Part shown: piece after piece, positions 42,574 to 54,321 of the stretch
Numbering within the stretch: position 1 is the stretch's first letter
Layout: each line of letters begins with the position of its first letter
NCBI RefSeq assembly: GCF_003751785.1
Contig: NZ_RKIE01000002.1
Coordinates: 682,001-746,000, forward strand
DNA from: Frigoribacterium sp. PhB160
GTDB taxonomy: Bacteria > Actinomycetota > Actinomycetes > Actinomycetales > Microbacteriaceae
Reading direction: 5' to 3'
Length of the DNA stretch: 64,000 bases
The notes under the pieces: model-generated
The model's database searches: none
Seen by the model: only the letters and a program-made list of their open reading frames with translations
Told to the model about the DNA's origin: nothing
Position numbers and translations under genes: made by a program

Positions 42574-43085
42574 CGGTGCGCAGGGCCGGGGCCGCCGGCG
42601 TCGCCGAGGCCGAGGCCGGGGCCGGGGCCGAGACCGACGGCGCGGGCCGGGCGGCCGTCGTCGACCCCCTCGCGCTGGAGGCGCAGGTCTGCTTCGCCCT
42701 GTCGGTCGCGTCCCGCAGCGTGGTCGCCGCCTACCGTCCGGTCCTCGAGCCGCTGGGCCTGACGCACCCGCAGTACCTCGTCATGCTCGCCCTGTGGGAG
42801 CGCTGCCCGCTGTCGATCCGCGACCTGGCCGGCCTGCTGCGGCTCGACCCCGGCACGCTCTCGCCGCTCGTCAAGCGCCTCGAGGCGCAGGGCCTCGTCA
42901 CGCGGGGCCGCGACCCCCGCGACGAGCGCGTGCTCGCCGTCGCGCTGACGCCCGCCGGCCGCGCCCTCCGCGCCGAGGCCGAGTCGATCCCCGAGCGCAT
43001 GGCGCGGCGGCTCGACGTGACCCACGACGAGCTGGTCGTGCTGCACCGCACCATGGCGAAGCTGATCGCCGCCGCGGAGGGGTGA
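42570..43085 (+). CDS. MarR family regulator, OhrR-like
   Basis: 171 residues. The core aligns by eye with OhrR: Cys41 (QVCFALSVASR) occupies the reactive-cysteine position, Tyr55 (AAYRP) is conserved, and LTHPQYLVMLALWE plus the winged helix (SIRDLAGLLRLDPGTLSPLVKRLEAQGLV, wing RDPRDERV) follow. One of the usual tyrosines that orient the cysteine is Ser45 here. An Ala/Glu/Gly-rich N-terminal extension of about 30 residues is unusual. No ohr peroxidase gene is adjacent. Likely an autoregulated sensor of peroxide or another electrophile (inference). Confidence 0.85.
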   Translation: MTVRRAGAAGVAEAEAGAGAETDGAGRAAVVDPLALEAQVCFALSVASRSVVAAYRPVLEPLGLTHPQYLVMLALWERCPLSIRDLAGLLRLDPGTLSPLVKRLEAQGLVTRGRDPRDERVLAVALTPAGRALRAEAESIPERMARRLDVTHDELVVLHRTMAKLIAAAEG

Positions 43086-43103: not shown

Positions 43104-43144
43104 CCGCGCCTCCTCGTGTCCGGTGCCGGCGTCAGGAGGCGCGG
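43104..43144. terminator. Inverted pair of the over-represented octamer between MarR and aminopeptidase genes
   Basis: CCGCGCCTCCT (43104-43114) and AGGAGGCGCGG (43134-43144) form an 11-bp stem with a 19-nt loop between convergent genes. It can act as a bidirectional terminator. Confidence 0.6.
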
Positions 43145-44481
43145 GGCAGCGACGGCAGCGAGGTGCCGTCGAGCCAGGCCGCGAAGAGGGCCGGCAGCGA
43201 GCCGTCGTCGACGCCGGTGACGGCCACGCAGTGCTCGACGAAGTCGCGGGTGGTGACGACGCCGTGCCGGTTCGCGTCGGTCCACGAGCGCAGCACGTCG
43301 AAGAACGCCGCGTCGCCCACGGTCACCCGGAGCGCCTGCAGCGTGAGGGCGCCCCGCTTGTAGACGCGGTCGTCGAACATGAGGGCCGGCCCGGGGTCGC
43401 CGACCACGATGTCGTGCGGCGGGAGCACGAGCCGCAGGTGCGTCCGGCCCGCCTGGGTCGCGGCGCTCGGCCCGCCGGAGCGCTCGGCCCAGAGCCACTC
43501 CGCGTAGCAGGCGAAGCCCTCGTTGAGCCAGATGTCGCGCCAGGACGCCAGTCCGACGCTGTTGCCGAACCACTGGTGAGCGAGCTCGTGCGCGATGAGC
43601 CGCTCGGTGCCCGACTGCCCGTCGACGTGGTTGGCCCCGAAGACGGCCATGCCCTGCGCCTCCAGCGGGATCTCGAGCTCGTCGGCCGTGACGACGACGG
43701 TGTAGCTCGGGAACGGGTACGGCCCGAACGCCTCGACGAAGCACGTCATCATGTCGCCGAGGTCGGCGAAGTCGTGCTCGGCGCGGTCGTGCAGCCCGGG
43801 CGGCGAGACGAGCAGGCCCGCGACCGGCGCGGCGGCGTCGCCGAGCGCCGTCGCCGTCGTCTCGTAGCGGCCGATCTGCACGGTGGCGAGGTAGGTCGCG
43901 GTCGGCTCGGGCTGCTCGTACGTCCAGGTGACGCGGCCCGGCGTGGTGCGGCGGCCGACGAGCTCGCCGTTGCAGACGACGGTGTAGCCGTGCTCGGCCG
44001 AGACGCTGACCCGGTAGCTCGCCTTGTCGTCGGGGCGGTCGTTGCACGGGAACCAGGTCGCGGCCCCGTTCGGCTGCGACGCGACGAGGACGCCGTCGGC
44101 GAGCTCCTCCCAGCCGAGCTCTCCCCACGTCGTGCGGCGGGGGGCGGGCGCCCCGCCGTAGTCGATGCGCACGACGAGCCGCACGCCGGCCTCGACCTCG
44201 CCGGGCAGGGTCACGACGAGCTTCGTCGCCGTCTGCTGGAACCGCGTCTTGGCGCCGTCGACCCGCACCTTGTCGACGCGCAGGCCCACCAGGTCGAACG
44301 AGAGCCGCCGGAGGCGCGTGGACGCCACCGCGGTCACCGTCGCCGTGCCGTCGAGCCGGTTGGTGGCCACGCGGTACGACAGGTCGAGGTCGTACAGGTC
44401 GACCGACCAGGCGGGGTCGCCGCTCTCGGGCGTGTAGTCGGGCGTCGCGGGGCCGGAGGCGGGCGGGCGGCCGGTCGTCAC
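43132..44481 (-). CDS. M1 family zinc aminopeptidase
   Basis: 449-residue metallopeptidase with HELAH (His298, Glu299, His302) and the third ligand Glu321 in NEGFA. The exopeptidase GxMEN motif reads GMAVFG here, a variant. No signal peptide or membrane segment is visible, so it should be cytoplasmic. GTG 44481 overlaps the stop of the NRPS-like gene by 4 bp (GTGA): the two are translationally coupled. Zinc aminopeptidases degrade epsilon-poly-lysine in producer Streptomyces, so it may trim or clear the product of the upstream synthetase (inference). At 449 residues it is shorter than the roughly 850-residue aminopeptidase N type. Confidence 0.9.
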   Translation of the reverse strand: MTTGRPPASGPATPDYTPESGDPAWSVDLYDLDLSYRVATNRLDGTATVTAVASTRLRRLSFDLVGLRVDKVRVDGAKTRFQQTATKLVVTLPGEVEAGVRLVVRIDYGGAPAPRRTTWGELGWEELADGVLVASQPNGAATWFPCNDRPDDKASYRVSVSAEHGYTVVCNGELVGRRTTPGRVTWTYEQPEPTATYLATVQIGRYETTATALGDAAAPVAGLLVSPPGLHDRAEHDFADLGDMMTCFVEAFGPYPFPSYTVVVTADELEIPLEAQGMAVFGANHVDGQSGTERLIAHELAHQWFGNSVGLASWRDIWLNEGFACYAEWLWAERSGGPSAATQAGRTHLRLVLPPHDIVVGDPGPALMFDDRVYKRGALTLQALRVTVGDAAFFDVLRSWTDANRHGVVTTRDFVEHCVAVTGVDDGSLPALFAAWLDGTSLPSLPRAS

Positions 44482-47400
44482 GACGACGACACGGCGTGGT
44501 AGTCGGCGAAGGCGACCTCGCGCCACGGCCCGATGGGGTTGCCGCTCCACCGGCTGCCGGCGGGCACGCCCTCGCCGCGCATGACGAGCGAGGCGGGCCC
44601 GACGGTCGCGTGCTCGCCGACGACGGCGGCGGGCAGCACGACCCCGTGCGGGCCGAGGGTCGCCCCGGCGCGGATGATGACGGTGTCCATGGACATGATT
44701 CGATCATGGAACAGGTGCGTCTGCACGACGCAGCCGCGGTTCACCGTGCTGCCGTCGCCGAGCGTGACGAGGTCGGCCTCGGGCAGCCAGTAGCTGTCGG
44801 TCCACACGCCGCGGCCGATGGAGGCCCCGAGCGAGCGCAGCCACCAGACCAGCGCGGGCGTGCCGGCGGCCGCCCGGGCGAACCAGGGCGCGGCGCACAT
44901 CTCGGTGAAGACGTCGGCGACCTCGCTGCGCCAGACGAACGACGACCAGAGCGGCTTCTCGGACGCGGCGACCCGGCCGATGAGCAGCCACTTCGCCGCC
45001 GTGCTGACGGCGGCGGCGACCCCGCCGGCGGCGAGCATGACGACCGGGCTGGCCAGGGCGGCGAGCCCGACGCCGCCGACGGCGGCGAGGGCGAGCAGCG
45101 CGGCGACGAGGCCGAGGCCGATCCAGACGGTGACGACGACCGGGACGACCCGGCCGAGCTCCCACGCGACGCGGGCGGCGCGCAGGCGGGCCGGGGGCCG
45201 GAACGTGCGCGACTCGTCGGAGGCCGCCACCGTGCGACGGAGCCGGACCGGCGGCGAGCCCAGCCACGACGACCCCGCCTTCGACGAGCGGGGCGCCGCC
45301 GACAGGACGGCCACGAGGCCGTCCTCCGGCACCGTGTGGCCGGGGCCGGCCATGCCCGAGTTGCCGAGGAAGGCGCGCCGGCCGATCTCGGCACGGGCCA
45401 CCCGGAGGTAGCCGCCCCCGAGCTCGTACGAGGCGACGAGGGTGTCGTCGGCGAGGAACGCCCCGTCGCGGATCGTCGTCATGCAGGGCAGCAGCAGCAC
45501 GGTCGAGGCCTCGACGTCCGTGCCGACCCGCGCGCCCAGCAGGCGCAGCCAGACCGGCGTGAACAGGCTCGAGTACAGGGGGAACAGGTACGAGCGCGCC
45601 AGGTCGAGCAGCCGCTCGGTGCTCCACACCTGCCAGCCGACGCGGCTGCGGACGGGGAACGTGCCCTCCGTCACCCCCGTCGCGGCGACCCGCACGAGCA
45701 CGACGACGGCGACCGCGGCGACGACTCCCGCGACGAGCGTGCCGGGCACGCTCCAGGCGAGGGCCAGCCAGCCGGCCTCGGCCAGGGTGTCCGCGCCCCG
45801 GACGCCGAGCGCGACGACGAGGCCGCCGGCCGCCAGCGAGGCCACGGGGAGGAGGCTGATCAGCAGCGACGAGACGCCGTAGGCGACGAGCCAGCGCGTC
45901 GCCCGGGCGGGCCGCTCGGCCGGCCACCACGTGCGGGCCTTGCCGGTGCGGGCGGCGGGGGAGCCCGACCAGGCCTGCCCCGCACGCACGCGCCCGAAGA
46001 CGGCCGAGCCGGGCGCGACCGTCGCGCCCTTGCCGATGCGGGTGCCGGGCAGCAGGGTGCTGCGCATGCCGATGGTGCTGCCCGCGCCGATTCGCACGGC
46101 GCCGAGCCGCAGCACGTCGCCGTCGAGCCAGTGGCCGGAGAGGTCGACCTCGGGCTCGATCGAGGCGCCGCGGCCGACGCGCAGCAGGCCCGTCACGGGC
46201 GGCAGGGTGTGCAGGTCGACGTCGCGGGCGACGCGGGCGCCGAGCGCCCGGGCGTAGTAGCTGATCCAGGGCGCCCCCGCGAGGCCGGTCGCGGCGGTCT
46301 GCAGCTGCACCTGCTCGGCCAGCCAGAGGCGCAGGTGGACGCTGCCGCCCCGTGGGTGGTCGCCCGCGGCGACGCCGTGCAGCAGGAGGCGCGAGGCCGC
46401 CACCGAGATCGCCATGCGGCCGGGCGGCGCCACGAAGAGCAGCAGGCCGACGACCAGCCACGCGACGTCGACCCGCGGCAGCACCGCGACGCCGCCCCAG
46501 GTCGCCGCCGCCGTCGAGGCGGTCAGGGCGATCGTCGTCCAGCGCAGCCCGGAGAGGAGGTGGAGGGGGACGCCGAGCAGGGTCTGCAGCCACTGGGCGC
46601 GGGCCGGGGTCGGGAGCGAACGGTGGAACTCGGTGCGGGAGGGGTGCGCGGTGCCCGACGCGCCTTCGGCGGTCCGGGTCGCGAGGGACTCGGCCATGGC
46701 CCCGAGGCGCGGGTGGGAGTACGCGTCGGCGACGGTGTACTCGGACGCCCGGTCGCGGAGCCGTGCCACGAGCTGGGCCGCCGCGAGCGAGCCGCCCCCG
46801 AGGTCGAAGAAGTTCGCCGAGGCGTCGGCGACGGGCAGGCCGAGGACCGCCTGCCAGTCCGCCGCGAGCTCGAGCTCGTCGGGGGTCAGCGCCCCCTCGT
46901 CGGCGCCCTGGTCGGGCAGCGGCCAGGGCAGGGCGCCGCGGTCGATCTTGCCGGAGGTCTTCGTCGGCAGGTCGCCCTCGACGACCGCCAGCAGGGGCAC
47001 GAGGGCCGCGGGCAGCTCGTCCCGGAGCCGGGCCAGGGCCGCCGCGCGGTCGAGGGCGGGGGCCGCGCCGCCCGGTGCGCCGTCGCCCCGCAGCGCGAGG
47101 TACCCGACGATGACCTGGTTGCCGGCGTCCGTCTCGCGGACCGCCGCCGCCGCGCCGGCGACGCCGGGCAGGGCCTGCAGCGCCGCCTCGATCTCGCCGA
47201 GCTCGATGCGGCGCCCGCCGACCTTGACCTGGTCGTCGGCCCGGCCCTGGAACAGCAGCCCGGCCGGGTCGAAGCGCACCAGGTCGCCGCTGCGGTACGC
47301 GCGGGCCCAGCCGAGCTGCGGGTGCGGCGCGTACTTCTCGGCGTCCTTCGCCGGGTCGAGGTAGCGGGCGAGGCCGACGCCGCCGATGATCAGCTCGCCG

Positions 47401-48533
47401 ACCTCGCCGTCGCCGACCGGCCGGCCCTCCGGGTCGACGACCGCGACGTCCCAGCCGAGCAGCGGCAGTCCGATGCGGATCGGCTCGCCGGGCACCACGA
47501 GGGCCCCCGTCGCGACGACCGTCGACTCGGTCGGCCCGTAGGTGTTCCAGACCTCGCGGCCCTCGCCGCAGACCCGGTCGACGAGCTCGGGCGGGAAGGA
47601 CTCGCCGCCGAAGACGAGCAGCCGGACCGACTCGAGCGCCTCGGGGGGCCACAGCGCGGCGAGCGTCGGCACGGTCGAGACGACGGTGATGCCGTGGGTC
47701 ACGAGCCACGGCCCGAGGTCGGCCCCGGTGCGGACGAGGCTGCGGGGCGCGGGGACCAGGCACGCGCCGCTCCGCCAGGCCAGCCACATCTCCTCGCACG
47801 AGGCGTCGAAGGCCACCGACAGCCCGGCGAGCACGCGGTCGCCCGGGCCGAGGGGGCCGAGAGGCCCGCTGGGCTCGCCGGCGAGGAACAGCCGGGCCTC
47901 GGCGTCGGCGAACGCGGCGGCCGACCGGTGGCTCGCGGCCACGCCCTTCGGGGTGCCGGTGGATCCCGAGGTGAAGATGACCCAGGCGTCGTCCTCCGGT
48001 CGGGGCGGCTGGACGGCGGCCCCGGCGCCGGCCGAGCGGGGGTGCGGGGCCCGGGCGGAGAACAGGGGCGTGCCCTGCAGCTCGCCCTGGCCGGGGGTCC
48101 GGTAGACGCCGCCGGCCGCAACGACGCCGGCGACGTGGGCCTCGCCGAAGACGAGGGCGGCGCGCTCCTCGGGGTCGTCGGCGTCGACGGGCACGTAGGC
48201 CGCGCCGGCGGCCAGCACGGCGAGGACAGCGACGTACAGGCGCCGGTCGCCCGAGGGCATGCGCACGCCCACGCGGTCGCCCCGGCGGACTCCCGCCCCG
48301 GCGAGGGCCGAGGCGGCGGCCTCGACGAGGGCGGTCAGCTCGCGGTAGCTCACCGCGCCCCGGTCGTCCTCGAGGGCGGAGGCCTCGGGGTGCGCGGCGG
48401 TCGTGGCGACGAGCACGTCGACGAGGGTGCGCGGCGGGGCGGCCGCCGACGAGCGGGCGACGACGCCGGGCAGCTCGGCCCCGGGCTGGTCGGCGCGGGG
48501 CCGGTCGGCGTCCGGCAGGGGGGTCTCCGGCAT
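44478..48533 (-). CDS. Membrane-bound single-module NRPS, poly-amino-acid-synthetase (Pls) architecture
   Basis: 1351 residues. Adenylation domain (about 40-540) has TSGSTGTPKG (188-197), FDASCEEMW (242-250), YGPTE (332-336), YRSGDLVRF and SGK (Lys529). The carrier domain has NFFDLGGGS with Ser582 for phosphopantetheine. Then come about six membrane helices in three pairs (near 659-718, 881-950, 1128-1186) separated by three left-handed beta-helix/acyltransferase-like domains (about 753-860, 996-1098, 1233-1335). There is no condensation or thioesterase domain. This A-T-TM-C1-C2-C3 order is that of epsilon-poly-L-lysine synthetase and the TIGR02353 family. My specificity-code reading is DAESVGTVVK. 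ATG 48533; preceded by a phosphopantetheinyl transferase, followed by an M1 aminopeptidase. Confidence 0.92.
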   Translation of the reverse strand: MPETPLPDADRPRADQPGAELPGVVARSSAAAPPRTLVDVLVATTAAHPEASALEDDRGAVSYRELTALVEAAASALAGAGVRRGDRVGVRMPSGDRRLYVAVLAVLAAGAAYVPVDADDPEERAALVFGEAHVAGVVAAGGVYRTPGQGELQGTPLFSARAPHPRSAGAGAAVQPPRPEDDAWVIFTSGSTGTPKGVAASHRSAAAFADAEARLFLAGEPSGPLGPLGPGDRVLAGLSVAFDASCEEMWLAWRSGACLVPAPRSLVRTGADLGPWLVTHGITVVSTVPTLAALWPPEALESVRLLVFGGESFPPELVDRVCGEGREVWNTYGPTESTVVATGALVVPGEPIRIGLPLLGWDVAVVDPEGRPVGDGEVGELIIGGVGLARYLDPAKDAEKYAPHPQLGWARAYRSGDLVRFDPAGLLFQGRADDQVKVGGRRIELGEIEAALQALPGVAGAAAAVRETDAGNQVIVGYLALRGDGAPGGAAPALDRAAALARLRDELPAALVPLLAVVEGDLPTKTSGKIDRGALPWPLPDQGADEGALTPDELELAADWQAVLGLPVADASANFFDLGGGSLAAAQLVARLRDRASEYTVADAYSHPRLGAMAESLATRTAEGASGTAHPSRTEFHRSLPTPARAQWLQTLLGVPLHLLSGLRWTTIALTASTAAATWGGVAVLPRVDVAWLVVGLLLFVAPPGRMAISVAASRLLLHGVAAGDHPRGGSVHLRLWLAEQVQLQTAATGLAGAPWISYYARALGARVARDVDLHTLPPVTGLLRVGRGASIEPEVDLSGHWLDGDVLRLGAVRIGAGSTIGMRSTLLPGTRIGKGATVAPGSAVFGRVRAGQAWSGSPAARTGKARTWWPAERPARATRWLVAYGVSSLLISLLPVASLAAGGLVVALGVRGADTLAEAGWLALAWSVPGTLVAGVVAAVAVVVLVRVAATGVTEGTFPVRSRVGWQVWSTERLLDLARSYLFPLYSSLFTPVWLRLLGARVGTDVEASTVLLLPCMTTIRDGAFLADDTLVASYELGGGYLRVARAEIGRRAFLGNSGMAGPGHTVPEDGLVAVLSAAPRSSKAGSSWLGSPPVRLRRTVAASDESRTFRPPARLRAARVAWELGRVVPVVVTVWIGLGLVAALLALAAVGGVGLAALASPVVMLAAGGVAAAVSTAAKWLLIGRVAASEKPLWSSFVWRSEVADVFTEMCAAPWFARAAAGTPALVWWLRSLGASIGRGVWTDSYWLPEADLVTLGDGSTVNRGCVVQTHLFHDRIMSMDTVIIRAGATLGPHGVVLPAAVVGEHATVGPASLVMRGEGVPAGSRWSGNPIGPWREVAFADYHAVSSS

Positions 48534-48597
48534 GGGGGCTCCGCGGCTCGTCGGGCCCCGCGGCGGGTCGCGGGGCGGGGGCAGGTCGCCTGGGAAC

Positions 48598-49302
48598 CTA
48601 GGTCGCGTCGGTGACCGGCAGGTGAACGCGGGCCCCCGCGGCCGCGAGCCCGACCCCCGCGACGGCGGCCGCGAGCCGCGGGCCGAGCGGGAGGTCGAGC
48701 ACGTCGACGGCGACGGCCGTGCCCTCGGCCGCCGTGGCGACGCCGTCGCCCGCCGACCGCAGCAGCACGCCGTCGGGGTCGCGCGCGAGCCCCTCGCCGG
48801 TGGCCTTGAGGGCCGCCTCGACGCGCACCCAGCGCGGCAGGTCGTCCACGACGCCCCGGCCCGCCGGACGGCCGGGGAGGGGGCGGGGGCCGGCGACGTG
48901 CTGCTCGACGTCGACGCCGACCGGCAGCCCGCGACGGAGGGCGACGAGCGCCTCCCCGCCCGACCTGCTGAGGGAGAGGTGCAGGTCGTCGCCGTCGACG
49001 ACGACGGGCCGGCCGTGCGGCCCGCCGCAGCGCGGGCACGGCTCGCGGCCGAGGCGCACGTCGCGGGGGTGCCGGCCCAGGGCCCGGCCCACGACGAGGC
49101 GGAGCGCGACGCGCGACAGCAGCAGTCGGTGGCGGACGGTGGCGTCGAGGGCCGACGCGGCGCGGGCGCGCTCGTCGTCGTCGAGCCAGCCGGCCGGGTC
49201 GCCGGGCGGCAGCGACAGGGCGAGCGCGGCGCCGAGGCCGTCCGCGGTGTCGTCGAGCCCGAACGACCAGACGTCGGCGGGGGCGTCGGTCGGCTCGGTC
49301 AC
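48598..49302 (-). CDS. 4'-phosphopantetheinyl transferase (Sfp-type)
   Basis: Loads phosphopantetheine on carrier-protein serines; the obvious target is Ser582 of the synthetase 64 bp downstream. 234 residues with CPRCGGPHGRP, LSLSRSGG, the magnesium motif GVDVEQ and WVRVEAALKATGEGL (the usual WxxKEA has Val for Lys). The gap between the last two motifs is shorter than in Sfp, about 30 residues. GTG 49302. Same strand as the synthetase, so it is probably the first or second gene of that operon. Confidence 0.9.
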   Translation of the reverse strand: MTEPTDAPADVWSFGLDDTADGLGAALALSLPPGDPAGWLDDDERARAASALDATVRHRLLLSRVALRLVVGRALGRHPRDVRLGREPCPRCGGPHGRPVVVDGDDLHLSLSRSGGEALVALRRGLPVGVDVEQHVAGPRPLPGRPAGRGVVDDLPRWVRVEAALKATGEGLARDPDGVLLRSAGDGVATAAEGTAVAVDVLDLPLGPRLAAAVAGVGLAAAGARVHLPVTDAT

Positions 49303-49371: not shown

Positions 49372-49704
49372 TCAGCGGAGCGGCTGCGGCACGACGTCGG
49401 GGCGCGACCAGTGCAGGTCGAGCGGCCTGCCGACCCGCAGGTCGACCTCGGAGCGGAACGCCGCCTCGAAGTGCCGCGCCGCGCGCTCGTCCGACACGAC
49501 CACGTCGACGCGGAGGGCCCCGAGCTCGTCGGTCACGAGCACGGGGCCGTCGGTGAAGCGCACGAGGTACTGGTGGTCGCGCACGGGGATGTTCTCGTAG
49601 TGCCGGCGCAGGGCCTGCTCGAGCAGCCGCACCGACTGGATGCCGTCGGTCGGCCGGACGGAGGCGCTCATCGCGATCATGAGCCGATGGTGCGCCGTCG
49701 ACAC
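49372..49704 (-). CDS. Hypothetical protein upstream of the PPTase gene
   Basis: Up to 110 residues, compact alpha/beta composition without cysteines, signal or membrane segment. The open frame begins at GTG 49704; ATGs at 49680 and 49671 (MSASVRPTDGIQSVRLLEQ) are alternatives, and none has a good ribosome site. Core segments are HYENIPVRDHQYLVRFTDGPVLVTDELGAL and VVVSDERAARHFEAAF. I do not recognise it. It lies 69 bp before the PPTase gene on the same strand and may belong to the same transcript. Confidence 0.6.
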   Translation of the reverse strand: MSTAHHRLMIAMSASVRPTDGIQSVRLLEQALRRHYENIPVRDHQYLVRFTDGPVLVTDELGALRVDVVVSDERAARHFEAAFRSEVDLRVGRPLDLHWSRPDVVPQPLR

Positions 49705-50069: not shown

Positions 50070-51233
50070 TCACTCTCCCTGTCCGCGCGCGGCGCCGGCG
50101 GGCTGTGCCGCCGCCGGGGCCTCGTCGCTGTCGTTGACCGTCTCGTGCGTCACGGGGTGCCGGCGGGCCAGCACCCCGAACGCGACCCCGCCGCCGAGCG
50201 CCAGGACGGCGACGACCACGAGGCCGGCCGTGCTCGTGCTGGCGAGCCAGGCCGAGGCGCCGCCGACGAGCGCGGCGGCGGGCAGCGTCACCACCCAGGC
50301 CGAGGCGATGCGGCCGACGACGCCCCAGTGCACGGTCGCGAGCCTCTTGCCGAGCCCGGCGCCGACGATCGAGCCCGACGTGACCTGCGTCGTCGAGAGG
50401 GCGAAGCCGAGGTGCGACGAGATGAGGATCGTCGCGGCCGAGCTGGTCTCGGCGGCGAAGCCCTGCGGCGCCTGCACGTCGGTGATGCGCTTGCCCACGG
50501 TGCGCATGATGCGCCAGCCGCCGAGGTAGGTGCCGAGGGCGATCGCGAGGCCGCAGGCGACGATCACCCACAGCTGCGGCGGAGTGCCCGAGCCCTGGTA
50601 GCCCGCCGCCACGAGGGTGAGGGTGATGACGCCCATCGTCTTCTGGGCGTCGTTGGTGCCGTGGGCGAGGGAGACGAGGGAGGCGCTGATCGTCTGGCCG
50701 TGGCGGAAGCCGGCCGTCGAGCCGCGGAGGGTCGCCTGCCGCGTGACGCGGTACGCGACGTAGGTCGCGACCAGCGCCACGACGCCGGCGACGAGCGGGC
50801 TGATGAGGGCAGGCAGCACGACCTTGGAGAGGACGACCGCGAAGTCGACCGAGCCGAGGCCCGCCCCGATGACCGCGGCGCCGATGAGGCCGCCGAAGAG
50901 GGCGTGCGACGAGCTGGACGGCAGCCCCAGGTACCAGGTCGCCAGGTTCCAGACGACGGCGCCGACGAGGCCGGCGAAGATCATCGTCGGCGTCACCTGC
51001 ACCCCTCCGTCGCCCTCGCGGATGATGCCGTTCGACACGGTGCTCGCGACCTCGGTCGAGAGGAAGGCCCCGACGAGGTTGAGGACGGCCGAGATGAGGA
51101 CGGCCGCCTTGGGCTTCAACGCGCCGGTGGCGACCGAGGTGGCCATCGCGTTGGCGGTGTCGTGGAACCCGTTCGTGAAGTCGAACACGAGGGCGACGAC
51201 GATCACGAGCGTCACGGTGACGAGGACGTCCAC
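50070..51233 (-). CDS. PiT family inorganic phosphate transporter
   Basis: 387-residue low-affinity phosphate (metal-phosphate):H+ symporter. Both PiT signature regions are visible: FTNGFHDTANAMA near the N-terminus (about 19-31) and SLAHGTNDAQKTMGVI in the second half. About ten helices. GTG 51233 has GGGAGGAG 5 nt upstream; the open extension to 51770 is not coding. The C-terminus is a short Ala/Glu-rich tail. The upstream 330 bp contains an inverted repeat and a GTTCACGG element (see that entry). Confidence 0.93.
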   Translation of the reverse strand: MDVLVTVTLVIVVALVFDFTNGFHDTANAMATSVATGALKPKAAVLISAVLNLVGAFLSTEVASTVSNGIIREGDGGVQVTPTMIFAGLVGAVVWNLATWYLGLPSSSSHALFGGLIGAAVIGAGLGSVDFAVVLSKVVLPALISPLVAGVVALVATYVAYRVTRQATLRGSTAGFRHGQTISASLVSLAHGTNDAQKTMGVITLTLVAAGYQGSGTPPQLWVIVACGLAIALGTYLGGWRIMRTVGKRITDVQAPQGFAAETSSAATILISSHLGFALSTTQVTSGSIVGAGLGKRLATVHWGVVGRIASAWVVTLPAAALVGGASAWLASTSTAGLVVVAVLALGGGVAFGVLARRHPVTHETVNDSDEAPAAAQPAGAARGQGE

Positions 51234-51564
51234 GGGTGCTCCTCCCTTCGGGACGGCCTCGTGGCCGCGACGACGGCGGAGCGTCCCGTGCGAGGCCGAC
51301 GCTACGTCCGGCACGCGACGCGCACCGTGAACAGCCGATGAATTCGTGCAGGCCGTGCACGATCGGGTCACCGAGCTCCTCGACGGGGTGGTCGGCGGAT
51401 CACCCGCCCACGACCAGGGGTCACCCGTCCCCCCGGTTGGGGGGCGGGTGCCGGGGAGGTAATCTCCGAGAGCGCGGGACACACCCGGCCCGCGCGGAGA
51501 CCGCGAGGCCCGAACCTCGTGAAGATCGCGTCGGCCCGAGACCGTCGTGAGGATCGAGTCCGCC
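51234..51564. promoter_or_regulatory. Divergent regulatory region between pit and the first FnIII gene
   Basis: 331 bp with no gene. It contains GTTCACGG on the minus strand (51325-51332, PHO-box-like half), the inverted repeat TCGTGCA-N5-TGCACGA (51344-51362), three TCACC sites (51368, 51400, 51421) about two and three helical turns apart, and a long C6/G6 hairpin (51422-51450). The plus-strand promoter TTGGGG-17-TAATCT (51437-51465) overlaps that hairpin. Confidence 0.5.
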
Positions 51565-52956
51565 ATGAAGCGTTCCCTGCCCGTCGTCGTCGCGCTCGCG
51601 ACGGCCCTCGCCTGCCTCGGCGGGGCCCCGGCCCTGGCGGCCGGCACCGTGCCGACCGGCAGCGCCTCGTCCGGCACCACGGCGGCGCCCGCCGCCGCCC
51701 GCGCCACGGCGGCGCCGTCCGTGCCTCGCTCCGTCACCGTGGTCGCCTCCGGCGCGACCGGTGCCGTCATCTCGTGGAAGGCCCCGGCGACCTCCGGCAG
51801 CGGCTCCCTGCTCGGCTACTCGCTCGACGGCTTCGTCGGCGCCGCGAAGCAGCCGATCAGCACCGAGTGGACGAGCGCCACGACGTTCCGCTACGACGAC
51901 CTGACCCCCGGCGTGACGTACCGCCTCCAGCTCAAGGCGTGGAACCACGACGTCGCCAGCAAGCCCGTCACCGTCAGCTACACCGTGCCCACCACGCCGA
52001 CGACGCCCGCGAGCCCCACCGTCTTCGCCGTCGTGGGCGGCCAGATCGTCTCCGTCCCCTCGACCGGAGGCGCCGCCACGGTCGTCGCGGCGGCCCCCGC
52101 CTCGGGCGGCTGGGACGTCGACGCGAAGGGCGTGACCGTGCTCGACAGCGCGGCGGGCACGCTCGTGCGCCACGACCTGGCGAACAAGGCCACCACGCTC
52201 GCGACGGGCCTCGTCGGCGCCGCCGAGCTCACCGTCGACGCGTCGGGCACGGCGTTCGTGAACACCGCCGACGGGGGGATCGCGAAGATCACCGCGACGG
52301 GCGCGCGCAGCGTGCTGGCCGCTCCCTTCGGGTCGAAGGGCAAGCAGCTCTCGGTCGGCAGCGACGGCCGGCTCGTCGTCCTCTACGCCGCCTCGGGCGC
52401 CTCGTTCTACACGACCGCACGCAGCTACCCGGCGGGGTCGTCGACGCCCACCGCCGACACCCCCTACTCGCGCAGCTACGGCTTCTACGACATGGTCGCC
52501 GGCCCCACGGGCATCTACTACACGCACGACAACGCCGGCGGCGGCACCGGGTTCGTCAGCTGGCTGCTGCAGACGGGCGCGGGCGCGCCCTCGACGCCCT
52601 CGCCCAGCCTCTCGACCCGCATCACGACGAACGCCGGCGGCTACGGCAACGACGGCGTCTTCCACTCGCTGCAGGCCGCGAAGATCTGCTTCGGCTACTC
52701 GCCCGTCAACCCCTGCGTCGCCGACGACACCCTGACCGAGCTCGTGGCGTCGCCCGCCGCCGGCACGACGACGGTCGTCCCGGCCAGCGGCCTCCGCGTC
52801 TCGCCGACCGGCTCGAGCGTCGACGCCGACACCGCCGGCACGGTCTACGTCGCCGACGCCGCGACCTCGCCCGGTCTCTGGTCGGTGGCCGGGTCGGGAG
52901 GCGCCGCGAAGCTCCTCCTCGCCGGCGCGGCCCGTGACGTGAAGGTCCGCGGCTAG
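51565..52956 (+). CDS. Secreted FnIII / beta-propeller-like protein (paralogue 1)
   Basis: 463 residues. Signal peptide MKRSLPVVVALATALACLGG with APALAA cleavage site, a fibronectin-III-like domain (about 42-132, VPRSVTVVASGATGAVISWKAP to VSYTVP), then repeated beta-strand segments like a propeller (VFAVVGGQIVSVPSTGG, GTVYVADAA). A cysteine pair (ICFGYSPVNPC) near residue 375 may form a disulfide loop. ATG 51565 chosen for the signal peptide; GTG 51547 is in frame. Function unknown; possibly surface binding. Confidence 0.82.
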   Translation: MKRSLPVVVALATALACLGGAPALAAGTVPTGSASSGTTAAPAAARATAAPSVPRSVTVVASGATGAVISWKAPATSGSGSLLGYSLDGFVGAAKQPISTEWTSATTFRYDDLTPGVTYRLQLKAWNHDVASKPVTVSYTVPTTPTTPASPTVFAVVGGQIVSVPSTGGAATVVAAAPASGGWDVDAKGVTVLDSAAGTLVRHDLANKATTLATGLVGAAELTVDASGTAFVNTADGGIAKITATGARSVLAAPFGSKGKQLSVGSDGRLVVLYAASGASFYTTARSYPAGSSTPTADTPYSRSYGFYDMVAGPTGIYYTHDNAGGGTGFVSWLLQTGAGAPSTPSPSLSTRITTNAGGYGNDGVFHSLQAAKICFGYSPVNPCVADDTLTELVASPAAGTTTVVPASGLRVSPTGSSVDADTAGTVYVADAATSPGLWSVAGSGGAAKLLLAGAARDVKVRG

Positions 52957-52971
52957 GTCGACGGCCACCTC

Positions 52972-54321
52972 GTGAGACGCACGCTCGCCGTCACCGCCGT
53001 CGTCGTCGGTGCCCTCGTCCTCGGGGGAGGGGCGGCGGCGAGCACGCTGCTGCCCGCCCACGAGCCGCCGCCGCCCGCCGCCCTCACGGCCACGGGGGAC
53101 GGGCCCACCGTGATCGAGCTCGCCTGGCAGCCGCCGGGTCGGAGCACGGCGGGTCCCGTCACCGCCTACTCGCTGACGCTCGTGCCGACGGCCGGGCAGA
53201 CCTCGACCTTCACCCGGTGGCTGGAGGCGGACGAGACCTCCGCCCGACTCGACGGCGCCGTGGCCGAGACGTCGTACCGCTACGAGCTGACGGCCTGGGC
53301 GGGCGACGTCGAGGGCCGCAGCGCCAGCGTCGACTTCACCACCCCCGAGAGCACCTCCCGCGTCGTCGCGGTCGTCGACGACGAGATCGTCTCGATCCCG
53401 TCGGGCGGCGGCGAGCTGACGAGGGTGGCGACCGCGCCCGCCGCGCCGGGCGGCTACGTCGTCGACGCGAGCGGCAACGTGACCGTGCTCGACAGCGAGC
53501 GGGGCACCCTCGTGCGCCGCGCCTCCTCGGGGGCTGCTCCCGAGACCCTGGCCGCCGACGTCGAGGGAGCCCGCGAGCTCGCGGTCGACTCGCTCGGCAC
53601 CGTGTACCTGCTCACCGCAGACGGCCGGGTCGCCGCCTACGGCGCCCGCGGCGCGGAGCGCACCGTCGCCCGCACGCTGCCGGCGCCGGGCGCCCAGCTG
53701 TCGGTCGGGCCGGACGACAGCCTGCTCGTGCTCTACGGGGTCGCCGACACGAACGACTACACGGCCCGCACCTACGCGCCCGACGGCCTCGACGACTTCA
53801 CTGAGCGGACCTTCCTGCAGGGCGTCGGCCTCCGCGACGTCGTGGCGGGCCCGTCCGGCACGCTGTTCTACGACCGCAACGCCGGCGGCGCCTCGGGCCT
53901 GCAGTTCTGGGGCCGCGACGACGGCATGCCGACGGCCCGCAGCGTCGCCGTCTCGTCGCGGGCGACCGCGGTGGCGGGCGGCCTCGGCTCCGACGGGCTC
54001 TTCCACGTGCTCGAGGCGGCCCAGACGTGCCCGCCGGCCCTGGCCGACGCCGACGCGACCGCCGCGACCTGCACCGAGGACCTCGCCGTCGACGCCCTCA
54101 CCGCCACGACGACGGACGGCGACCGCACGACGCGGGCCGTGACGGGCGTGTCGCTCGCCGACGCCGTCGACACCGGCAGCCTCGCGGCCGACTCGTCGGG
54201 CACCGTGCTCGTCGCCGAGCCGGACGGCGCGACGCCGGGGCTCTGGGCGATCGACCCCGACGGGACGGAGGCGCGCCTCCTCGTCCCCGGGTCGGCCCGC
54301 GACGTGCGCGTCGTCGGCTGA
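52972..54321 (+). CDS. Secreted FnIII / beta-propeller-like protein (paralogue 2)
   Basis: 449 residues, clearly a paralogue of the preceding gene: same order of signal/anchor segment (RRTLAVTAVVVGALVLGGGAA), FnIII-like domain (PTVIELAWQPPG to SVDFTTPE) and propeller-like part. Matching phrases include VLDSERGTLVRR versus VLDSAAGTLVRH, and an end of GSARDVRVVG versus GAARDVKVRG. The disulfide loop is conserved but longer (TCPPALADADATAATC). GTG 52972 lies 15 bp after the first gene, so the pair is one transcript from a tandem duplication that has since diverged widely. Confidence 0.8.
   Translation: MRRTLAVTAVVVGALVLGGGAAASTLLPAHEPPPPAALTATGDGPTVIELAWQPPGRSTAGPVTAYSLTLVPTAGQTSTFTRWLEADETSARLDGAVAETSYRYELTAWAGDVEGRSASVDFTTPESTSRVVAVVDDEIVSIPSGGGELTRVATAPAAPGGYVVDASGNVTVLDSERGTLVRRASSGAAPETLAADVEGARELAVDSLGTVYLLTADGRVAAYGARGAERTVARTLPAPGAQLSVGPDDSLLVLYGVADTNDYTARTYAPDGLDDFTERTFLQGVGLRDVVAGPSGTLFYDRNAGGASGLQFWGRDDGMPTARSVAVSSRATAVAGGLGSDGLFHVLEAAQTCPPALADADATAATCTEDLAVDALTATTTDGDRTTRAVTGVSLADAVDTGSLAADSSGTVLVAEPDGATPGLWAIDPDGTEARLLVPGSARDVRVVG

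What the first reader, a model, noticed from the sequence alone, without database searches (positions are those of the whole stretch)
43132..49302. A compact poly-amino-acid synthetase operon: PPTase, Pls-type membrane NRPS and coupled M1 aminopeptidase
Seen: a 1351-residue protein with adenylation and carrier domains, six helices in three pairs and three soluble beta-helix/acyltransferase-like domains, no condensation or thioesterase domain. Known: this is the layout of epsilon-poly-L-lysine synthetase and TIGR02353 proteins. Inference: the upstream phosphopantetheinyl transferase activates it, and the M1 aminopeptidase, overlapping by GTGA, degrades or trims the product, as zinc peptidases do in poly-lysine producers. 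Homopolymers are scarcely described in Microbacteriaceae, so product and role are open.
Basis: partly seen in the sequence, partly recalled or inferred. Interest (0 to 1): 0.82.

Follow-up and report, generated by a model that had tools for sequence, protein, structure and literature searches.

The report
Three-gene polylysine synthetase cassette
An actinobacterium carries a compact three-gene set that very probably makes the antimicrobial polymer epsilon-polylysine; the enzyme family is already known, but in this bacterium's genus the synthetase, its likely activating enzyme and a peptidase are present or absent together as one block.

Summary
The 1351-residue protein is a Pls/PosA-family synthetase (TIGR02353 684.8 bits, cut-off 423.1). 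Its adenylation domain is 67% identical to Streptomyces albulus epsilon-poly-L-lysine synthase of known structure, with pocket DAESVGTVVK against DAESIGTVVK, so the likely product is epsilon-poly-L-lysine. The overlapping M1 peptidase sits where PldII sits in S. albulus (4-nt overlap, PMC4361855) and follows pls in 80 of 80 named loci. Pls with a coupled peptidase is thus known, and Pls homologues in Microbacterium are in print (PMC8117764).

Points I did not find in print: a PPTase lies near pls in 36 of 40 named Micrococcales loci and 0 of 39 Mycobacteriales. In the window's genus the three genes are all present or all absent (8 and 8 of 16 genomes). In the 12 congeners without them at this site the flanking genes lie 21-79 bp apart. 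The M1 has no export signal here; of 116 pls-linked M1 proteins only that of the sampled locus nearest S. albulus Pls has a signal-like N-terminus. Product, chain length and peptidase role are untested. A member of a known kind.

The parts
48598..49302 (-). Sfp-type 4'-phosphopantetheinyl transferase, 234 aa; GTG start; ends 64 bp before the synthetase
   Evidence: HetI model 31 bits only, cut-off 370; AlphaFold model matches Sfp 4mrt, E 8e-12; motifs
44478..48533 (-). Pls-type epsilon-poly-L-lysine synthetase, 1351 aa (A-T-membrane polymerisation half)
   Evidence: TIGR02353 684.8 bits
46911..48461 (-). adenylation domain (residues 25-541); pocket DAESVGTVVK at residues 243, 244, 247, 286, 307, 309, 331, 339, 340, 529
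   Evidence: phmmer to 7wew 618 bits; 67% identity; pocket code
46689..46868 (-). carrier (PP-binding) domain, residues 556-615, with LGGGSLA serine
   Evidence: 40.4 bits; sequence
44532..46589 (-). TIGR02353 region, residues 649-1334: three helix pairs, each followed by a beta-helix acyltransferase-like domain
   Evidence: AlphaFold model; Foldseek
44478..44481 (-). GTGA stop/start overlap between synthetase and peptidase
   Evidence: 4-nt overlap in 68 of 120 loci and 1-nt overlap in 18 of 120
43132..44481 (-). two-domain M1 metallopeptidase, 449 aa, no signal-like N-terminus
   Evidence: nearest PDB 6a8z, 174 bits; N-terminus
43519..43590 (-). M1 zinc motif HELAHQWFGNSVGLASWRDIWLNE
   Evidence: sequence
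42669..43082 (+). MarR-family gene flanking the cassette (right border; the stretch used as query, the ORF starts further up)
49372..49704 (-). 110-aa ORF flanking the cassette (left border), no Pfam hit

Best explanation
This is a self-contained cassette for making epsilon-poly-L-lysine. The PPTase attaches phosphopantetheine to the carrier domain of Pls. The A domain activates L-lysine as the adenylate and loads it on that arm. [quoted passage not shown] The co-translated M1 peptidase hydrolyses polylysine and protects the producer; because it lacks an export signal here, I think it most likely clears polymer or short chains inside the cell. Shown by sequence: domains, pocket, gene overlap, co-inheritance. 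Inferred: product, chemistry in this organism, PPTase-Pls pairing, peptidase substrate and place of action.
For: TIGR02353 684.8 bits, named by NCBIfam Pls/PosA family. A domain best PDB match is epsilon-poly-L-lysine synthase 7wew, 618 bits, 67% identity. Pocket DAESVGTVVK against 7wew DAESIGTVVK; 117 of 120 loci carry exactly the 7wew code, the window and L109 carry Val, and the one locus with another code, L121 DFEYNGTVTK, has no M1. In PosA the Asp at position 1 and Glu at position 3 bind the substrate, and Ala at position 2 goes with lysine enzymes (PMC10522769 passages). A Corynebacterium Pls, reported 51% identical to Streptomyces Pls, made epsilon-PL in S. coelicolor (PMC8117764). M1 on the same strand downstream in 80 of 80 named loci and in 116 of 120 loci; among the 113 loci compared, three pairs are over 99% alike. 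PPTase near pls in 36 of 40 named Micrococcales. In the genus 8 of 8 pls-positive genomes have M1 and PPTase and 0 of 8 negatives do. Flanking genes 21-79 bp apart in 12 of 12 congeners lacking the cassette there. S. albulus pls and pldII overlap by 4 nt (PMC4361855 passages).
Against: No product or expression data. C. variabile itself made no detectable epsilon-PL in the conditions tried (PMC8117764), so the gene may be silent. Three loci with the lysine code (L169, L170, L171; best-segment identities of the synthetase 50, 42 and 38%) have no M1 in the stretch held (rest of those genomes not searched), so M1 is not always beside a lysine-code enzyme. PPTase is absent near pls in 39 of 39 named Mycobacteriales loci and missed in 4 of 40 Micrococcales. 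PldII is reported on the cell surface (PMC9205021 passages), unlike the leaderless M1 here, so its role may differ. No passage I saw states that PldII is an M1 peptidase; that rests on the gene in its position in L158 and on recall.
Confidence: 0.85

Rival explanations
1. Same enzyme layout, other product: a homopolymer of another diamino acid (ornithine, diaminobutyrate, beta-lysine) or a short oligomer or conjugate.
For: Pls/PosA relatives make delta-poly-ornithine and others (PMC10522769 passages); the window and its nearest relative L109 differ from 7wew at one pocket position, I to V.
Against: Position 2 is Ala and nine of ten positions equal 7wew; Phe is reported at position 2 for diaminopropionate/diaminobutyrate enzymes and Met for the ornithine enzyme (PMC10522769 passages); identity to the lysine enzyme is 67% over the A domain. 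I-to-V is conservative.
Confidence: 0.1
2. The M1 peptidase is an extracellular chain trimmer or surface protector, as proposed for PldII in S. albulus.
For: PldII activity reported on the cell surface (PMC9205021 passages); repression of pldII gave chains over 40 residues (PMC9223678 passages); the sampled locus closest to S. albulus Pls, L158, has a Tat-like N-terminus.
Against: Of 116 pls-linked M1 proteins 115, the window's among them, have no strongly hydrophobic stretch before the M1 domain (highest 15-residue mean 1.22 against 2.09 in L158, two extensions too short to measure; a hydropathy measure, not a trained predictor); Pld/PldII inactivation reported to have no effect on chain length (PMC8506220 passage).
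Confidence: 0.2
3. The PPTase is a general enzyme for the cell that only happens to lie here.
For: Its position varies between lineages and it is a weak match to curated PPTase models.
Against: No homologue at E <= 1e-5 in any of 8 pls-negative congeners, present in all 8 positives; linkage occurs in three arrangements: upstream co-directional, downstream convergent, downstream co-directional; the own genome has only two other PP-binding hits, in open frames of 97 and 380 codons.
Confidence: 0.05

Closest known systems
Streptomyces albulus Pls / pldII operon (epsilon-poly-L-lysine)
   Same: Pls with lysine pocket; peptidase gene overlapping by 4 nt, translationally coupled (PMC4361855, PMC9223678 passages)
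   Different: M1 here has no export signal; a PPTase is part of the unit here; Ile to Val at one pocket position. The S. albulus locus itself was not in hand, only its A domain (7wew)
Corynebacterium variabile Pls operon (PMC8117764, parts 1-2 of 4 read, rest searched by terms)
   Same: Pls plus peptidase gene in an operon in a non-filamentous actinobacterium; that Pls shown to make epsilon-PL in a heterologous host
   Different: The paper's main text holds no mention of a PPTase. Two unnamed 3.0-3.5 Mb genomes of one genus (L167, L168) have a convergent PPTase at the end of M1, but their genus name is not shown
PosA delta-poly-L-ornithine synthetase, Acinetobacter baumannii
   Same: Same TIGR02353 architecture, Asp and Glu in the pocket (PMC10522769 passages)
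   Different: Pocket DMEHNGTVSK; single-gene operon without obvious co-transcribed neighbours according to that paper
Two-domain M1 peptidase, PDB 6a8z / 6iff
   Same: Nearest solved relative of the M1, aligned over nearly its whole length
   Different: Linkage of that gene to a synthetase was not examined; organism (Deinococcus radiodurans) is recalled
Sfp phosphopantetheinyl transferase, PDB 4mrt
   Same: Predicted fold and motifs
   Different: 18% identity; this branch has a conserved C-x2-C ... HG stretch

Membership tests
Pls/PosA-family synthetase (TIGR02353) | TIGR02353 score over curated cut-off | tested here: met
   684.8 bits against 423.1
Pls/PosA-family synthetase (TIGR02353) | one A and one T domain, no C or TE domain | tested here: met
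   Pfam scan
Pls/PosA-family synthetase (TIGR02353) | six helices and three tandem acyltransferase-like domains | tested here: met
   AlphaFold model and Foldseek; a hydropathy scan alone gave merged stretches
epsilon-poly-L-lysine synthetase (Pls) | lysine-type pocket (Asp, Ala, Glu at positions 1-3) | tested here: met
   DAESVGTVVK; criteria from PMC10522769 passages
epsilon-poly-L-lysine synthetase (Pls) | makes epsilon-poly-L-lysine | not testable with these tools
   needs expression and MS
PldII-type polylysine-degrading peptidase | gene directly after pls, overlapping it | tested here: met
   GTGA overlap; PldII overlap in PMC4361855 passages
PldII-type polylysine-degrading peptidase | exported, bound outside the membrane | tested here: not met
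   no signal-like N-terminus in the window M1; only L158 of 116 has one. I therefore call it a PldII-position homologue, not PldII
PldII-type polylysine-degrading peptidase | hydrolyses epsilon-polylysine | not testable with these tools
   needs enzyme assay
M1 metallopeptidase | HExxH-18-E zinc site and M1 domains | tested here: met
Sfp-type PPTase | fold and G-x-D-x-E / W-x3-E-A-x2-K motifs | tested here: met
Sfp-type PPTase | Pfam ACPS (PF01648) over cut-off | tested here: not met
   12.4 bits against 25; the assignment as a PPTase therefore rests on fold and motifs

The most novel reading that the evidence does not exclude
In most actinobacteria polylysine synthesis is a self-contained trait: synthetase and a leaderless cytosolic M1 peptidase made in fixed proportion by translational coupling, so that the peptidase acts as an internal safety valve against polymer that forms or leaks inside the cell, plus, in Micrococcales, a dedicated activating PPTase; in the window's genus the whole block is gained, lost or moved as one roughly 6.3-kb unit without any transfer genes of its own. 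The exported, surface PldII of S. albulus would then be a derived special case.
Probability: 0.4. Interest if true: 0.5.

Novelty: new member of a known kind. Interest (0 to 1): 0.42.

Why it matters
Epsilon-polylysine is a food preservative whose natural role is poorly understood (PMC8117764). A compact cassette with its own likely activating enzyme, with a Pls-type A domain in 128 of 299 sampled genomes of this family, offers portable expression units and a natural experiment (sister species with and without the block, with an empty site) for asking what the polymer does. The leaderless peptidase makes the question of where and why producers degrade their own polymer directly testable.

Tried and rejected
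Considered and rejected: M1 as a housekeeping PepN (TIGR02412 101 bits against cut-off 591; all 16 genomes of the genus searched have a separate larger M1 at 26-28% identity). Loss of the exopeptidase glutamate in M1: the QGMAV stretch first looked like a degenerate GAMEN motif (recalled), but the HMMER alignment puts the Glu of IPLEAQGM there, so I dropped it. Product other than lysine polymer: see rivals. Chance neighbour for the PPTase: rejected by co-occurrence.

Results against a simple story: the upstream PPTase order is limited to the genus and Frondihabitans; four congeners (G004, G008, G013, G015) carry the cassette at another place and have the MarR-ORF110 genes 39-40 bp apart, and their cassette flanks were not followed; in G006 only the MarR side of the junction is kept. 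Of four named Micrococcales without a PPTase hit (L026, L027, L029, L062), L062 has a short downstream flank. The 80 named loci are the best 80 of at least 583 confirmed stretches, so they lean to close relatives. Sorting them into orders used genus names from the titles and recalled taxonomy (only Frondihabitans was looked up). Gaps are between tblastn match ends, not gene ends. In one search plain hydropathy over the first residues did not single out an export signal: L028 (1.96) and L033 (1.94) exceed L158 (1.83), their peak lying inside the M1 domain; one search measured only the part before the domain. Starts of M1 genes that do not overlap pls are uncertain.

Rows dropped: alignment A1 had L019 and L020 on the wrong strand and was replaced by A2, which also leaves out L005 and the divergent L022. 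A4 used 28 of the 113 loci listed plus the window; A3 used 24 of the PPTase hits plus the window. In one search my reference for the 110-aa ORF was one base out of frame; it was redone.

Limits: the class search hides genome names, so a Streptomyces identity of L158-L163 and L175 is a guess from genome size. PMC2935060, the primary PldII paper, is not held; Yamanaka 2008 was not read. No paper linking a PPTase gene to pls was seen: searches (1 paper; 15 of 55 listed); term look-ups gave no phosphopantetheinyl hit in PMC8117764, PMC10522769, PMC9205021 and PMC8506220 and only unrelated ones in PMC4361855 and PMC8949500.

Full report
CHECK. Three ORFs on the minus strand are as described: PPTase 48598-49302, synthetase 44478-48533, M1 peptidase 43132-44481, the last two sharing GTGA. 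The synthetase scores 684.8 bits for TIGR02353 (cut-off 423.1), which NCBIfam names Pls/PosA family. Pfam sees AMP-binding, PP-binding and hexapeptide repeats, no C or TE domain. A model of residues 632-1351 shows three pairs of long helices (about residues 644-717, 879-951, 1115-1185), each followed by a beta-helix domain; Foldseek matches are mainly serine and sugar acetyltransferases. The family is Microbacteriaceae: G019, same family, has the contig length of Frondihabitans sp. Leaf304, and Frondihabitans is in that family.

SUBSTRATE. The best solved relative is the A domain of epsilon-poly-L-lysine synthase, 7wew (618 bits; 67% identity). Using the ten GrsA-numbered pocket positions (recalled), the pocket is DAESVGTVVK; 7wew is DAESIGTVVK. 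Of 120 loci examined 117 carry the 7wew code, the window and its nearest congener L109 have Val, and L121 has DFEYNGTVTK. PMC10522769 (passages) shows that Asp and Glu at positions 1 and 3 bind the two amino groups and that Ala at position 2 goes with lysine. I therefore expect L-lysine.

PEPTIDASE. M1 is downstream on the same strand in 80 of 80 named loci, 48-63% identical to the window's. Over 120 loci (80 named, 39 unnamed, window; among 113 compared, three pairs are over 99% alike) 116 have it: 68 with the 4-nt overlap, 18 with a 1-nt overlap, 30 with another spacing; 4 have none. The four without are L121 (other code) and L169-L171 (lysine code; only the stretches held were searched). 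M1 belongs to a short two-domain kind; nearest PDB 6a8z, 174 bits. In S. albulus pldII overlaps pls by 4 nt (PMC4361855 passages), so this arrangement is known. PldII is described as an aminopeptidase on the outside of the membrane (PMC9223678, PMC9205021 passages). Here the M1 begins VTTGRPPASGPATPDYTPESGDPAW, with nothing like a signal peptide. Measured only on the part before the M1 domain, 1 of 116 proteins has a strongly hydrophobic stretch: L158, 15-residue mean 2.09, next highest 1.22, window -0.69. L158 is the locus whose A domain is nearest to 7wew in the class sample (78%); its M1 begins with a Tat-like stretch, SRRGLLTAAAALPLGAAVLC.

PPTASE. The sequence is weakly matched (HetI 31 bits; ACPS 12.4 bits) but the predicted structure is Sfp-like, and the catalytic-type Asp, Trp, Glu, Ala and Lys columns are invariant among 25 aligned sequences, window included. 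With an iterated profile a PPTase lies near pls in 58 of 120 loci: 36 of 40 named Micrococcales and 0 of 39 named Mycobacteriales; one further named locus, L089, is of unknown order and has none. It is upstream and co-directional in the window, seven congeners and Frondihabitans; in the other hits it is downstream, convergent except in L090 and L170. My explanation (inference, recalled biology): Mycobacteriales have a general Sfp-type PPTase (PptT), while Micrococcales with few carrier proteins need a dedicated one; the window genome has only three PP-binding hits at E <= 0.1.

ONE UNIT. Of the window genome and 15 congeners, 8 have pls (own, G004, G006, G007, G008, G011, G013, G015). The same 8 have the short M1 at 64-100% identity and the PPTase; the other 8 have neither, only the larger M1 at 27-28%. 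Relatedness of the genomes is not corrected for. In the window, G007 and G011 the three genes lie between a 110-aa ORF and a MarR gene; in the 8 negatives these two are 21-79 bp apart, and in the four congeners with the cassette elsewhere 39-40 bp apart. In G006 only the MarR side is kept. So PPTase, synthetase and peptidase were gained or lost together here as about 6.3 kb; in the window the three ORFs fill it, leaving no room for an integrase or transposase.

DISTRIBUTION. A Pls-type A domain at E <= 1e-140 is in 128 of 299 sampled genomes of the family, 41 of 78 genera, and in 104 of 393 sampled genomes of the class. PMC8117764 (parts 1-2 of 4) had already listed Microbacterium among Pls-bearing genera and proved a Corynebacterium Pls by heterologous expression, so 'scarcely described in Microbacteriaceae' may hold for products but not for genes.

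VERDICT. A well-conserved epsilon-polylysine synthetase cassette. Known kind; the PPTase as part of the unit and the leaderless peptidase are the points that I did not find in print (paper searches, open-licence full text only).

Noticed in passing
51547-54321 (+): Two tandem ORFs, each with one fibronectin type III domain near the N-terminus; they look like paralogues. One stretch matching both at about 39-43% lies beside ORF110 in G002, G003 and G005.
   Followed up: no
50070-51360 (-): Phosphate transporter of the PHO4 family; close to the cassette here but far from it in G007.
   Followed up: partly
G000:C1:79707-80395: A carrier-domain hit next to an ACPS-type PPTase hit elsewhere in the own genome; not examined.
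   Followed up: no
L170:9410-10027: A lysine-code Pls relative (best segment 42%) without M1 has a weak PPTase-profile hit (30.8 bits) by the end of the synthetase, where M1 would be (coordinates in the orientation used).
   Followed up: no
L121: A TIGR02353-type protein 37% identical to the window's with pocket DFEYNGTVTK, not lysine-type, no M1, in a same-order genome that also has very long frames with several adenylation-domain matches.
   Followed up: no
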